A stretch of DNA of 64,000 nt from Desulfovibrio sp. UCD-KL4C (GTDB lineage Bacteria > Desulfobacterota > Desulfovibrionia > Desulfovibrionales > Desulfovibrionaceae): the NCBI RefSeq assembly GCF_006210265.1, contig NZ_VCNC01000002.1:434001-498000 (forward strand), given 5' to 3'. Shown here piece by piece: positions 11,192 to 27,742 of the stretch. The notes under the pieces were generated by a model, which saw only the letters and a program-made list of their open reading frames with translations, ran no database searches and was not told where the DNA came from. The position numbers and the translations under genes were made by a program. Numbering within the stretch: position 1 is the first letter of the stretch; each line of letters begins with the position of its first letter.

Positions 11192-12299
11192 ATGCTTCAA
11201 TTTTCTGATTTAAAATCTATGGCAGTAAACTGCAACAATAAATTCTCCAGCCTTTGGGGGAGACTTTGACCACGCTCAGAGTAAAGAGCGACTTGAAGAA
11301 ATAGAGCACGACCTGAGCAGGCCTGGAGCTTGGGACAAACCTGATGATCTGACTCCTATTCTAAGAGAAAAAAGTATTCTCGAAGAAAAAGTATCTTCGT
11401 ACGAAAATCTTTCCTCAACCCACAGTGATGTAGCAGAATGGATGACTCTTGCTAGTGAAGATCCTGATCAGGAAATTCTGGAAGCTTTGTCAGAAAATCT
11501 TATAAAACTTTCTAATTTAATCGAGCAGACGGAACTTTCCACTCTTCTATCTGCTCCTGAAGATAAAAGCACTGCTATATTGGAAATTCATCCTGGAGCC
11601 GGAGGAACTGAAGCTCAGGACTGGGCTGAAATGCTTCTTAGAATGTACATGCGCTGGTGCGAAAAAAGGAATTGGGAAGTCAGCTACCTTGATCTTCAGC
11701 CTGGAGACGAGGCAGGAATTAAAAGTGTAACTCTTCAGGTCAAAGGACTTTACGCGTACGGATTTCTCAAAGGGGAAGCCGGAATTCATCGCCTCATACG
11801 CATATCTCCTTATGACTCGTCCGGCAGAAGGCATACATCTTTCGCTTCAGTTGATGTATACCCTGAAATTTCTCACGATATTGAAATTGAAGTTAAAGAC
11901 GAAGATATTCGTTTAGATGTTTTCCGTGCCAGCGGACCTGGCGGCCAGCATGTTAACAAAACGAACTCAGCTGTGCGCATTACACATCTGCCGACCAATA
12001 TCGTTGTCCAATGTCAGAATGAAAAATCTCAGCTAAAAAACAAAGAAACTGCAATGAAAGTTTTAAAATCCCGCCTTTACGAGCAAGAGCTTAAAAGGCA
12101 GGAAGAAAGTAAAAAAGCTGACTATTCCACCAAGGATTCAATTGCTTGGGGAAGTCAAATTAAAACTTATACCATGCAACCTTATAGACTGGTTAAGGAC
12201 CATCGTTGCGGTGCAGAAGACGGAAACGTTGAAGCTGTTCTAGACGGTGAACTTGATGATTTGGTCAGAAATTACCTGCTTCATGCATACGGCGGATAA
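11192..12299 (+). CDS. prfB: Peptide chain release factor 2, with programmed +1 frameshift
   Basis: RF2 terminates translation at UGA and UAA. The gene is split into two frames. A 25-codon first frame (ATG at 11192) ends at an in-frame TGA at 11267-11269, and the rest continues in the +1 frame from 11268 to the stop at 12299, giving about 368 residues. The GGQ motif (SGPGGQHVN) is present. The codon-recognition tripeptide appears as SPY (RISPYDSSGRR), where most RF2 proteins have SPF. The start lies 4 bases after the lnt stop. A GGDEF gene follows at once. Confidence 0.95.
11256..11270 (+). promoter_or_regulatory. RF2 programmed +1 frameshift site
   Basis: The recoding signal has the classical parts: an internal Shine-Dalgarno-like GGGGG (11256-11260), a 3-base spacer AGA, the slippery CTT codon (11264-11266), and TGA followed by C (11267-11270). 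Low RF2 lets the ribosome slip from CTT to TTT, which autoregulates RF2 synthesis (known for the family). Confidence 0.93.
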
Positions 12300-13167: not shown

Positions 13168-13992
13168 ATGATCAACGCCAATAAGACATTAAGCATGGCA
13201 ATAATGAGTGGGAAAGGCGGAGTTGGAAAAACCAACCTATCTCTTAATATATCTTATGCTCTCAATGCCGGTGGAAACAGCCTCCTACTTATGGATTGCG
13301 ATTTAGGTTTGGCAAATCTTGATGTTCTCTTAGGGATTTCTCCTGAAAGCAACATGCAGGATCTGCTTCACAGCGGTACAAAACCCTCAGATATTGTTAT
13401 CCCTATTGAAAAAGACAAAAATTTTGATATTCTTCCAGCCGCTTCCGGAGTTCCTGAACTGGTTGAGATGGATGAGGATATGCAGGAAATACTTTTCGGC
13501 AAATTATCACAATTAGTAGGTCGGTATCAATATTTAGTTATGGATCTTGGAGCAGGAATAAACGGAACTGTTCTTTCTTTTGCTGCAATTACGCAGATGA
13601 GATTTATAGTGATAACACCTGAACCAACCTCTTTAACTGATAGTTATGCTCTGATTAAAGTTCTTCACACTCAACATAAAGTAAGTGATTTCAATGTTAT
13701 AGTGAACCAAGTTACTAACGAAAAAGAAGCTAGAGAGACTTTTGACAGACTAAATATGGCCTGTGAAAAATTTCTTAATATTAAGTTGAAAAATATAGGC
13801 TTTGTGCGCTATGATCCTTCAGTAACTGAAGCAGTTAGGAGACAGATACCCTTTATCAAATATGCTCCGAAATCCGAAGCAAGCCGTGATATTTTAAATA
13901 TCGCTGTCAAGATCCAAAAGATCAGGATGGAGAATATGGGTAAATTAGGTGACAGGCCAGTTATTAAAAAATTCCCGGCTCTATCAGCCTAA
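13168..13992 (+). CDS. FlhG/MinD-type ParA-family ATPase
   Basis: A 274-residue deviant Walker ATPase with SGKGGVGKT at residues 14-22, the MDCDLGLANLD switch I region near 46 and a VMDLGAGIN-type Walker B near 127. It resembles FlhG/YlxH (flagellar number control) and MinD. No FlhF or flagellar gene is adjacent, so the role is open. It ends in a short basic tail without an obvious MinD amphipathic helix. It follows the GGDEF gene by 15 bases, with a GGGATAGG ribosome site. Confidence 0.8.
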   Translation: MINANKTLSMAIMSGKGGVGKTNLSLNISYALNAGGNSLLLMDCDLGLANLDVLLGISPESNMQDLLHSGTKPSDIVIPIEKDKNFDILPAASGVPELVEMDEDMQEILFGKLSQLVGRYQYLVMDLGAGINGTVLSFAAITQMRFIVITPEPTSLTDSYALIKVLHTQHKVSDFNVIVNQVTNEKEARETFDRLNMACEKFLNIKLKNIGFVRYDPSVTEAVRRQIPFIKYAPKSEASRDILNIAVKIQKIRMENMGKLGDRPVIKKFPALSA

Positions 13993-14087: not shown

Positions 14088-14363
14088 ATGAACAAAAGTG
14101 AATTGATCAAGAATCTAGCTGAAGAAAAAGGACTCCATGTAGACGAGTCCTCCGAAATTGTTGATGCATTTGTTGATGCTATCAAAGAAGCTCTAGTCCG
14201 TGGCGACAGAGTTGAAATTAGAGGCTTCGGAAGCTTCAAAATGAAAGAATATCAAGGCTATACCGGTAGAAATCCTAAAACCGGTTCTGTTGTAAGCGTT
14301 ACACCTAAAAAATTACCGTTCTTCCGTCCAGGTAAAGAGCTTAAAGAATTTTTAAACGGATAA
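14088..14363 (+). CDS. HU/IHF-family DNA-binding protein
   Basis: A 91-residue nucleoid protein starting MNKSELIKNLAE. It has the VEIRGFGSF core, the DNA-intercalating GRNPKTG arm and the FRPGKELKEFLN C-terminus. The wording is closer to IHF-beta or single-gene HU than to IHF-alpha, but I cannot separate them reliably. The start at 14088 is preceded by GGGAGAGGA. An in-frame start at 14001 would place the promoter-like region in the protein. Its stop codon overlaps the ATG of the following selenoprotein gene (TAATG), so the two are translationally coupled. Confidence 0.92.
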   Translation: MNKSELIKNLAEEKGLHVDESSEIVDAFVDAIKEALVRGDRVEIRGFGSFKMKEYQGYTGRNPKTGSVVSVTPKKLPFFRPGKELKEFLNG

Positions 14364-15253
14364 TGCGCCCATACATATTTGTACTTTTCATCCTTGCCAG
14401 TATCGGGTTTCCTTTTCAAGCTCATGCTGGCAAGGATGCAGTATTGTCTATTGCATACACTGCCAACACTTTCGGGACAGTTAATCCCTGTCCGTCATGA
14501 GGCGGGAAAACACTTGGTGGACTGGCCCGGCGGGCTGGTTATTTTCAAGATCTTCGAGACTCTAAGAGTCCCGAAAGTTTTCTTATTGGTGGTGCCTTCG
14601 AATTTTTACCGACATCCGGAGTTGCTATCCCAAAGAATAAACGGGATGCTCTCTCTAAATCTTTCCAATTCATGAATTATGATTTGGGTATCCTCAGTCC
14701 AGCTGAGGTTGATTTGTTGCAGGAATCACCAAGTGGTATTCCCAAAAACTGGATTAACAGTAAAAAAACTTCTGCAAAAATTTTAACATTAACTAACGGT
14801 AAAAAAGCCGGATTCATAATATTGCCTTACCTTGAAAAAGGATCTAATGAATTACCGAGTGAATTACTTACTGAATTAACAGCAGTTTTTAAGAAATACA
14901 AAAGTAAAACTGATATCCTTATCGGAATTAGCCCATGGGGATATTTTAGAGAAAAAACACTTCTTTCTTCACCGATTTATGCAGCGTTCCCTCTCGACAT
15001 TCTTCTTGGAAGCGGAGATGGACCTGGTATGACCGGAACTGTTAGTAATAATGGTAAAACATTATGGGTCCGCAGCTACCCTACAGGAAAAGCTGTAAAT
15101 AGAATTGATATCTTTCAATGGCCGTCTCGTGATGCTGATTTCAAGTGGACTTCTGGCCAGAATATTCGGTGGTTTCTACAAAGCCTACGCGATAACGTTC
15201 GTGAAGAACAAACTGTACTGAAGCTCATTGAAGGCATTTCGGACGATAAATAG
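14363..15253 (+). CDS. UshA-like selenoprotein (in-frame UGA read as selenocysteine)
   Basis: Read through one TGA at 14498-14500, the frame is open from 14363 to 15253 and gives a 296-residue protein. Residues 1-22 form a signal peptide (MRPYIFVLFILASIGFPFQAHA), so it is probably periplasmic. The TGA is codon 46 in a C-P-S-U redox-type motif followed by GGKTLGGLARR. Upstream, SIAYTANTFGTVNPC resembles the start of 5'-nucleotidase/UshA-like metallophosphatases, and the family is known to me as UshA-like (seleno)protein. A hairpin suited to a bacterial SECIS follows the UGA. Standard ORF callers see only 14672-15253. The catalytic role is unknown. It is followed by dapA after 20 bases. Confidence 0.85.
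14498..14540 (+). promoter_or_regulatory. UGA(Sec) codon and putative bacterial SECIS hairpin
   Basis: After the TGA (14498-14500), bases 14520-14528 and 14532-14540 can pair in nine steps: GC pairs at the top, three GU wobbles lower down, apical loop GGC at 14529-14531. The loop begins 29 bases after UGA, within the range known for SelB-dependent recoding in bacteria. The fold was drawn by eye. Confidence 0.65.
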
Positions 15254-15273: not shown

Positions 15274-16152
15274 ATGATTTTCCAAGGAGCATATACTGCT
15301 CTGATTACTCCGTTCAAGAACGGGGCAATTGATCAGGATGCGTATCGTGAACTGATCGAATGGCAGATTGAACAAGGTATCGACGGTTTGGTTCCATGTG
15401 GAACCACCGGTGAAGCTGCAACGATGACTCACGAAGAACAAGGTGAGGTTATAAGAATCTGTGTTGAGCAGGCCAAAGGACGTGTCCCGGTCATAGCTGG
15501 CGCGGGTTCAAACAATACCAAAGAAGCTGTAAACCTTACAATTCTTGCCAAACAAGCAGGAGCTGATGCTACCCTCCAGATCACTCCGTATTACAATAAA
15601 CCGACTCCTCAAGGACTAGTTGAACATTTCAGGGCTCTTTCTCATGATGCTTCAATGCCTTTTATTCTGTATAATGTACCAGGAAGAACAGGTCTTAATG
15701 CCCTGCCCGAAACAATAGCAAGAATAGTTAAAGAAGTTCCTGATGTGATTGGTGTAAAAGAAGCTACAGGCAACCTTGCTCAATGTTCAGACCTTATTGA
15801 ACAATGCCCTAAAGGATTCGTAGTTTTCTCAGGTGATGATTTTACGGTATTGCCATTGCTTGCCCTAGGTGGTCATGGTGCTATTTCCGTAGTGTCGAAT
15901 ATCGCTCCTAAAATGGTGGCAGACATGTGCGCAGCGTTTCGCGCTGGGGATACTGCAAAGGCTAAGGATATTCACTACAAACTACAGCCCTTAAACAGAG
16001 CTATGTTTCTTGAAACTAATCCTATCCCGGTCAAAACATCTCTTGGCATGATGGGGATGCTTGAAACTTCGTTTAGACTTCCTCTTGTACCGTTACTTGA
16101 TGAAAACGAACAAGAGCTTAAGAGAGTTCTTAAAAAAAGCGAAATTATCTAA
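15274..16152 (+). CDS. dapA: 4-hydroxy-tetrahydrodipicolinate synthase
   Basis: DapA condenses pyruvate with aspartate semialdehyde, the first step toward diaminopimelate and lysine. The 292-residue protein has the pyruvate-site threonines in PCGTTGEAATM (about 44-45), Tyr133 in ILYNVPGRTG and the Schiff-base lysine in IGVKEATGN (about 161). Full length, with CAGGAGGC before the ATG. It follows the selenoprotein gene closely and ends at a strong terminator shared with convergent trmFO. Confidence 0.96.
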   Translation: MIFQGAYTALITPFKNGAIDQDAYRELIEWQIEQGIDGLVPCGTTGEAATMTHEEQGEVIRICVEQAKGRVPVIAGAGSNNTKEAVNLTILAKQAGADATLQITPYYNKPTPQGLVEHFRALSHDASMPFILYNVPGRTGLNALPETIARIVKEVPDVIGVKEATGNLAQCSDLIEQCPKGFVVFSGDDFTVLPLLALGGHGAISVVSNIAPKMVADMCAAFRAGDTAKAKDIHYKLQPLNRAMFLETNPIPVKTSLGMMGMLETSFRLPLVPLLDENEQELKRVLKKSEII

Positions 16153-26743: not shown

Positions 26744-27742
26744 ATGAAAAATTTAAACTCCGAACAAGACTTTCTAGCAATTATCGACAAATACTTTCCA
26801 CCTGTAAACGGACATGTAACTTTAGGACGTGGAGACGATTGCTCCATTTTGCAAACTAACGGTAAACTTTGCATAAGCAAGGATCTCTTTCTAGAAGATG
26901 TCCATTTCCGTCGTTCTTACTTCTCACCAGCAGACATCGGTTACAAAGCTCTTGCTGTAAATATAAGCGATATTGCTGCAATGGGAGGAGTTCCTGAAGG
27001 ATTTGCCTTAGGCCTCATTATACCTCCTGAACTAGATGAAAATTATTGGGACACACTCCTAAAAGAAATGGCAAAGCTGGCAAACAGTCACGGGCTTATT
27101 CTTGCCGGAGGCGATCTATGCAAAGGTCCATCACTAGGTATATCCGTTACTGTATGGGGTTCTCCTTATCAGGACCAAAAACTTTCATCAAAATCTAAAG
27201 GTAATTTTTTAACCCGTGGCAATGCTGAACCTGGTGATGTCCTTTTCATACATGGCTCACTGGGCCTTGCACGCACGGGGATGCAACTTCTTGAACGAAA
27301 CGACATAATAATCGCCGACAAAAGCCCTGCAAGCATACAGGCTCATTTACGGCCAAATATAAAAATTGAAGTCGGCACCGCTCTTTCAACTTATCCTGCC
27401 GTAAAGGGTTTAATGGATTTATCTGATGGGCTAGCTTGTGACCTGCCTCGCTTTATCGATTGCTGCGAAACAGCATTTGGAGCTGAAATTTCTTTAACTG
27501 GAAAAATTCTGCATGATGAAGTTATAAATTTTGCTGAGTCAGAAGGTATATTGCCGGAAGAACAAGCTTTCTTAGGTGGAGAAGATTACGCCCTATTCGG
27601 AGCTGCGTCGGCTGATAAGTTTCAAGAAATAGCGGAGAACATCGCAGGAATACTCCCTATAGGCGTGCTAACGGAAAAGGCTGAAATTTTACTGAACGGT
27701 AAAAAATATTGCCAAAAAGGATTTGACCATTTTTCTGATTAA
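26744..27742 (+). CDS. thiL: Thiamine-monophosphate kinase
   Basis: ThiL phosphorylates thiamine phosphate to thiamine diphosphate. The 332-residue protein has the family blocks GRGDDCSIL, SKDLFLEDVHFRR, NISDIAAMGGVPEGF, LAGGDLCKGP and the C-terminal LGGEDYALFG. Length is normal. No thiamine riboswitch was seen upstream, and it shares a transcript with the helicase gene. Confidence 0.93.
   Translation: MKNLNSEQDFLAIIDKYFPPVNGHVTLGRGDDCSILQTNGKLCISKDLFLEDVHFRRSYFSPADIGYKALAVNISDIAAMGGVPEGFALGLIIPPELDENYWDTLLKEMAKLANSHGLILAGGDLCKGPSLGISVTVWGSPYQDQKLSSKSKGNFLTRGNAEPGDVLFIHGSLGLARTGMQLLERNDIIIADKSPASIQAHLRPNIKIEVGTALSTYPAVKGLMDLSDGLACDLPRFIDCCETAFGAEISLTGKILHDEVINFAESEGILPEEQAFLGGEDYALFGAASADKFQEIAENIAGILPIGVLTEKAEILLNGKKYCQKGFDHFSD

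What the first reader, a model, noticed from the sequence alone, without database searches (positions are those of the whole stretch)
14363..15253. Hidden UshA-like selenoprotein: in-frame UGA read as Sec, fused frame not called by ORF finders
Two frame-2 pieces either side of a TGA at 14498-14500 read as one 296-residue protein. It starts at an ATG overlapping the HU/IHF stop codon, has a signal peptide and ends just before dapA. The UGA lies in a C-P-S-U motif, as in redox-active selenoproteins, and a hairpin of nine pairs with a small apical loop begins 20 bases after the UGA. Desulfovibrio-type bacteria are known to use selenocysteine. An intact signal peptide upstream and family-like sequence downstream make a sequencing error or a pseudogene less likely. 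The catalytic role of Sec in this phosphatase-like protein is unknown.
Basis: partly seen in the sequence, partly recalled or inferred. Interest (0 to 1): 0.8.

Follow-up and report, generated by a model that had tools for sequence, protein, structure and literature searches.

The report
UshA-like selenoprotein in a sulfate reducer
A bacterial gene that software reads as broken by a stop signal most likely encodes one exported protein with the rare amino acid selenocysteine; its family is already catalogued but has no known function, and it looks like an emptied phosphatase fold put to a new chemical use.

Summary
Window 14363-15253 (+) is one 296-residue frame with a single in-frame TGA (14498-14500) in a C-P-S-U motif. 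Evidence for selenocysteine is strong. In 58 related genomes, 42 of 45 above-cut-off places carry one TGA, and each of 25 no-stop copies examined has Cys there. Both sides of the UGA are under purifying selection. The genome has selA, selB, tRNA-Sec, and UGA-bearing selD and formate dehydrogenase. A 9-pair hairpin fits the published bacterial SECIS model; its 5-pair core is intact in 81 of 86 UGA copies but 7 of 25 Cys copies.

It is not a new family: NCBIfam NF049981, 'UshA-like (seleno)protein family 2', matches at 310.8 bits (cut-off 140), and a 2026 review lists it. The passages I saw give no function.

My reading: an exported protein on the 5'-nucleotidase metallophosphatase fold that lost its metal ligands (93 of 110 members keep none of eight, none keeps over two) and uses Sec as a redox nucleophile. 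Sec or Cys is invariant, while the partner Cys is missing in 3 of 111 copies.

The parts
14363..15253 (+). UshA-like selenoprotein gene, family 2 (296 residues, Sec at codon 46)
   Evidence: Read-through; NF049981 310.8 bits over cut-off 140; homologues with TGA in 34 genera
14498..14500 (+). Sec UGA codon in C-P-S-U
   Evidence: Column is U in 86 and C in 25 of 111 copies; sel machinery in the genome
14520..14540 (+). Putative bacterial SECIS hairpin: 9 pairs, loop GGC at 14529-14531, loop 28 nt after the UGA
   Evidence: consensus hairpin found unprompted in 28 aligned sequences; 5-pair core in 81 of 86 UGA vs 7 of 25 Cys copies
14363..14431 (+). Probable Sec-pathway signal peptide (to about residue 23, A-H-A|G-K)
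   Evidence: by eye from the sequence; no predictor run
14489..14491 (+). Cys43, the partner Cys of the CxxU motif
   Evidence: Cys in 108 of 111 copies
14088..14363 (+). Upstream HU/IHF-family gene, stop overlaps the Sec gene's ATG
   Evidence: Pfam PF00216 108.7 bits; TAATG overlap; HU upstream in 17 of 17 own-genus loci and in 0 of 28 others
15274..16152 (+). dapA, downstream neighbour
   Evidence: Pfam DHDPS 327.9 bits; DapA found in 37 of 45 fetched homologue loci
13168..13992 (+). MinD/ParA-type ATPase gene, upstream neighbour
   Evidence: found in 39 of 45 fetched homologue loci

Best explanation
The gene encodes one exported protein of 296 residues in which UGA codon 46 is read as selenocysteine by the cell's SelA/SelB/SelC/SelD machinery, guided by the hairpin just downstream. 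The protein keeps only the N-terminal, calcineurin-like domain of 5'-nucleotidases, without the metal-binding residues. After signal-peptide removal the selenol at Sec46 sits in the loop that follows the first strand, next to where the metals would be in UshA, and acts there as a redox nucleophile, usually paired with Cys43 as a selenenyl-sulfide. Shown: the frame, the family, the conserved UGA, Cys at the same column in no-stop copies, the conserved hairpin, the sel genes, the fold prediction, the loss of ligand letters. Inferred: export, the pocket location of Sec46, the redox chemistry, the substrate (unknown).
For: NF049981 310.8 bits. One TGA in 42 of 45 above-cut-off places in 58 genomes. 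25 of 25 no-stop copies have Cys at the column. dN/dS 0.04-0.19 before and 0.12-0.29 after the UGA in five pairs. selA, selB, tRNA-Sec and a UGA-bearing selD and FdhA in the genome. Hairpin fits the bSECIS model of PMC13188914; core kept in 81 of 86 UGA vs 7 of 25 Cys copies. Sec and Cys exchanged at least 5 times on the tree. G023, with Cys, has no selB over cut-off and no strong tRNA-Sec. AlphaFold model pLDDT 90.5; best Foldseek matches CD73, UshA and other 5'-nucleotidases, E 9e-14. Ligand letters: 93 of 110 members keep none of eight. The mature window protein has two Cys-type residues only, C43 and U46.
Against: No protein or Se measurement exists here. Whole-region fold energy does not separate UGA from Cys copies (one-sided p 0.16), and pair covariation is nearly nil because the stem hardly varies (53 of 500 shuffles reach it). 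The kinship-aware hairpin test has only 5 pairs (3.8 agree, p 0.125). Seven Cys copies keep the core; two UGA copies (L040, L043) lack it altogether and L021 has 3 of 5 pairs. Three members keep Sec without Cys43, which a CxxU couple does not predict. The UshA alignment behind the ligand count is weak (hhalign probability 7.9%). Three Cys-only genomes (G492-494) have selB and tRNA-Sec, so Cys does not always mean lost machinery.
Confidence: 0.6

Rival explanations
1. Sec46 works alone: a single selenol, in the emptied metal pocket, without a required partner Cys (peroxidase-like, persulfide-handling or small-thiol chemistry).
For: The Sec/Cys column is invariant in 111 of 111 copies while Cys43 is missing in L027, L100 (one genus) and L048, two losses on the tree. 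Among 23 UGA-bearing relatives outside the family, L073 and L075 also lack a Cys at U-2 or U-3.
Against: Cys43 is kept in 108 of 111 copies, so it matters in most. A partner Cys could lie elsewhere in those three.
Confidence: 0.22
2. Sec46 and Cys43 bind a metal (a new site replacing the lost dinuclear one) rather than doing redox chemistry.
For: The former ligand loops keep family-specific residues: G38, E80, S190, G193, G216, G218 in 104-110 of 110 members.
Against: No conserved His or Asp cluster replaces the lost ligands in the near-invariant columns; Sec is rarely selected as a plain metal ligand outside molybdenum, tungsten and nickel enzymes (general knowledge).
Confidence: 0.1
3. A working metallophosphatase or nucleotidase that happens to carry Sec.
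For: The fold matches 5'-nucleotidases; the conserved GG-x-A-R-R stretch resembles venom 5'-nucleotidase (E 0.00085).
Against: No member keeps more than two of eight ligand or catalytic letters; the C-terminal substrate domain is absent (296 residues against 516-552 for the solved relatives).
Confidence: 0.05
4. UGA is an ordinary stop: a pseudogene, sequencing error, or two separate genes.
For: Standard ORF calling splits the frame.
Against: The TGA is at the same column in 86 copies of 34 genera, with purifying selection on both sides. The internal ATG at 14672 has no clear ribosome site by eye.
Confidence: 0.02

Closest known systems
NCBIfam NF049981, UshA-like (seleno)protein family 2 (CxxU; listed in PMC13188914, passages seen)
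   Same: Match across profile positions 1-261 of 262 at 310.8 bits; CxxU motif; Sec position
   Different: Nothing essential: the window gene is a member. The table passage seen gives no function.
NCBIfam NF041198, UshA-like PCGU (family 1; COG0737 UshA-like CxU of PMC2398784, passages seen)
   Same: N-terminal 82 residues match weakly (40.8 bits)
   Different: Cut-off 275 not met; CxU instead of CxxU; 519 positions instead of 262
UshA / CD73 5'-nucleotidases
   Same: Fold of the N-terminal domain (Foldseek E 9e-14 to CD73; UshA 1hp1 E 1.7e-11)
   Different: Metal ligands and C-terminal domain lost; Sec site gained
Bacterial SECIS elements (model of PMC13188914, Fig. 2 legend, passage seen)
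   Same: 3-nt loop starting GG, 9-pair stem, 28 nt from UGA to loop
   Different: Not tested for SelB binding

Membership tests
NF049981 UshA-like (seleno)protein family 2 | Score over the curated cut-off of 140 bits | tested here: met
   310.8 bits
NF049981 UshA-like (seleno)protein family 2 | CxxU (or CxxC) motif | tested here: met
   C-P-S-U at 43-46
NF041198 UshA-like PCGU (family 1) | Score over the curated cut-off of 275 bits | tested here: not met
   40.8 bits; 0 of 58 relatives over cut-off
Bacterial selenoprotein | In-frame UGA aligned with Cys in homologues | tested here: met
   86 UGA and 25 Cys copies at the same column
Bacterial selenoprotein | selA, selB, selC, selD in the genome | tested here: met
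Bacterial selenoprotein | bSECIS hairpin: loop 3-9 nt, stem 4-16 pairs, G in first two loop positions, 16-37 nt from UGA | tested here: met
   model passage; coordinates
Bacterial selenoprotein | Selenium present in the protein | not testable with these tools
   needs mass spectrometry or 75Se labelling
5'-nucleotidase / metallophosphatase (COG0737) | Calcineurin-like N-terminal fold | tested here: met
   AlphaFold model and Foldseek
5'-nucleotidase / metallophosphatase (COG0737) | Dinuclear-metal ligands (UshA D41, H43, D84, N116, H217, H252, Q254; names recalled) and catalytic H117 | tested here: not met
   None kept in the window protein; 93 of 110 members keep none, 12 one, 5 two; the alignment to UshA is weak
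5'-nucleotidase / metallophosphatase (COG0737) | C-terminal substrate-binding domain | tested here: not met
   Protein ends after the N-terminal domain (296 residues)

The most novel reading that the evidence does not exclude
An abandoned metallophosphatase pocket has been rebuilt as a selenol active site in which Sec acts without an obligatory partner Cys: the Sec/Cys column is absolute, the partner Cys has been lost at least twice, the metals are gone, and Sec and Cys have swapped at least five times. One genus carries tandem Cys and Sec copies, which suggests two division-of-labour forms of the same enzyme.
Probability: 0.25. Interest if true: 0.7.

Novelty: new member of a known kind. Interest (0 to 1): 0.4.

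Why it matters
If the reading is right, a widespread exported selenoprotein of sulfate-reducing bacteria is systematically split by plain ORF callers. It would also show that a phosphatase fold can lose its metals and be reused for selenium chemistry, and it gives natural Sec/Cys pairs, some side by side in one genome, to test what selenium adds.

Tried and rejected
Rejected: pseudogene or sequencing error (TGA in 34 genera, purifying selection on both sides). Rejected: ordinary phosphatase (ligand letters gone). Rejected as evidence: whole-region RNA energy, which does not separate UGA from Cys copies (p 0.16); pair covariation, nearly nil. In one search the energy z-scores of most Cys rows used a window shifted by 9 nt and the residue tally of Cys rows read the wrong column; both were redone. 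One search took the wrong Arg pair in L030; one search supersedes its counts. One search placed H252 and Q254 one column off and named Q254 as H254; redid the count, which changed 96 members without any ligand letter to 93. Two parts of the work led nowhere: gene neighbourhoods did not reveal a substrate, and the plasmid collection gave no match.

Sampling: the 111 copies are not a random sample. 45 are the loci behind (44 full copies plus the broken copy L049), 5 come, 31 from 17 loci fetched because one search showed no-stop places, and 30 from genomes picked as divergent, so Cys copies are over-represented. The listings were cut by the tool. The tree used 96 of the 111: 14 own-genus rows and L049 were dropped, 85 used 110 (L049 dropped).

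Full report
What is there. Window 14363-15253 (+) reads as one 296-residue protein with a single in-frame TGA at codon 46. The ATG overlaps the stop of an HU/IHF-family gene (TAATG; Pfam), and dapA starts 20 bases after the stop. Standard ORF calling keeps only a 193-aa 3' fragment.

Known family. NCBIfam NF049981 'UshA-like (seleno)protein family 2' matches residues 28-289 at 310.8 bits, over twice its cut-off of 140; Pfam gives nothing. The 2026 review PMC13188914 lists this family with CxxU and the source 'GenBank annotated' (passages seen). NF049981 occurs in one paper of the held library. An older relative, UshA-like CxU, was counted in 2008 as 76 Sec and 92 Cys sequences in ocean data (PMC2398784, passages). 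Searches for a function gave none in the listings and passages I saw; no paper was read whole.

Is the UGA selenocysteine? In 58 related genomes, 43 have a match over the cut-off, in 45 places; 42 of these places have exactly one TGA inside, two have none, and the 45th is the downstream half of a broken copy whose upstream half has the TGA. Across the 111 copies I examined, 86 have TGA (34 genera) and 25 have Cys at the same column (7 genera). In five close pairs dN/dS is 0.04-0.19 before the UGA and 0.12-0.29 after it (computed). The window's genome has selA (598.7 bits), selB (382.6), tRNA-Sec (78.7) and selD (329.2), and both selD and a formate dehydrogenase alpha subunit carry an in-frame TGA. 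Among the 58 relatives, selB passes its cut-off in 54; strong tRNA-Sec matches (75 bits or more) are missing in G022, G023 and G048. G023, which has Cys, lacks both; its genus mate G583 (Cys) also shows neither but is only 74% complete. The genus of G492-494 has Cys although selB and tRNA-Sec are present, so loss of the machinery is not required. On a 96-row tree the Sec/Cys label needs 7 changes, at least 5 of them forced by well-supported branches.

The hairpin. It has 9 pairs (14520-14528 with 14532-14540), a GGC loop, and 28 nt between UGA and loop, inside the published model: loop 3-9, stem 4-16, a G in the first two loop positions, spacing 16-37 (PMC13188914 Fig. 2 legend). RNAalifold on 28 of the sequences found this hairpin and no other. 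Its core lies on the codons for A-R-R-A and is fixed by synonymous choice: the first Arg codon is CGG in 83 of 86 UGA copies and 13 of 25 Cys copies; the 5-pair core is whole in 81 of 86 and 7 of 25 (Fisher p 5e-11, not corrected for kinship). In eight window genes CGG makes 9 of 104 Arg codons, and two of those 9 are these. Against this: the kinship-aware comparison has 5 pairs only, of which 3.8 on average agree, with p 0.125; in a few of its random pairings one pair goes the other way. Whole-region energy does not separate the groups, although UGA copies of the first set are on average more stable than synonymous shuffles (mean z -0.67, 32 of 43 below zero; control windows -0.20, 74 of 126). 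Covariation is nearly nil. L040 and L043 lack this stem; other rule-obeying hairpins there are not better than chance (131 and 56 of 500 shuffles).

What the protein is. AlphaFold with 44 aligned sequences gives pLDDT 90.5. Foldseek's best PDB matches are CD73, UshA and other 5'-nucleotidases (E from 9e-14), 14-18% identity, over the N-terminal domain. The second substrate domain is absent. A profile alignment with E. coli UshA (weak: probability 7.9%, E 0.0044) sets the ligand positions opposite N35, F37, A78/F79, P113, A114, P191, G218 and G220. Over 110 members, 93 keep none of the eight expected letters, 12 keep one and 5 keep two (ligand names recalled). Other residues in the same loops are near-invariant: G38, E80, S190, G193, G216, G218 (104-110 of 110), besides R56, R57, E197, R237 and G242. 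The pocket therefore seems rebuilt rather than decayed. That is inference; no coordinates were available to measure distances.

Mechanism. The mature window protein has two Cys-type residues, C43 and U46. The simplest reading is a periplasmic selenol-thiol couple. But three members (L027, L100, L048; two losses on the tree) keep Sec without C43, and two of 23 UGA-bearing relatives outside the family (L073, L075) lack a Cys at U-2 or U-3. Sec, not the couple, is the constant element. I give 0.6 to a redox selenol on a metal-free phosphatase fold with Cys43 as usual partner, and 0.22 to a partner-free selenol.

Context. A MinD/ParA-type ATPase gene lies nearby in 39 of 45 fetched loci and DapA in 37 of 45; HU is upstream only in the window's genus (17 of 17, against 0 of 28 others). 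By eye, a dapF-like gene stands between the Sec gene and dapA or follows it in 14 of 24 loci printed. These are housekeeping neighbours and do not point to a substrate.

Verdict. A real selenoprotein gene and a new member of a curated but uncharacterised family. The additions here are the synonymous-codon evidence for the SECIS, the lost metal site, the dispensable partner Cys, and the tandem Cys/Sec pairs (14 loci in 13 genomes of one genus).

Noticed in passing
window 11264-11270: The release factor 2 gene upstream (ORF 11442-12299 lacks its N-terminus) has CTTTGAC preceded by GGGGGAG, the known RF2 frameshift site (motif recalled), so two UGA recodings lie 3.2 kb apart.
   Followed up: partly
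L080-L093 (14 loci, 13 genomes of genus g293): Tandem duplicates: a Cys copy directly followed by a Sec copy.
   Followed up: partly
L056-L079: Outside the order, 153 of 395 genomes of the phylum sample match NF049981 but only 6 pass its cut-off; of 24 sub-cut-off loci read, 23 have an in-frame TGA, 21 of them with Cys two or three residues before it. Much of this UshA-like Sec diversity is below both family cut-offs.
   Followed up: partly
L130:6764-7909, L131:6806-8056, L134:7094-8269: In three relatives from other lineages the next gene is a CCG-domain/4Fe-4S protein of the HdrD/GlpC type.
   Followed up: partly
L049 (G025): A second family-2 copy with TGA whose frame is broken downstream; described only.
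   Followed up: no
window 26807-27268: Weak selD-like match (30.7 bits, under the cut-off of 125), probably another member of that kinase-like superfamily.
   Followed up: no
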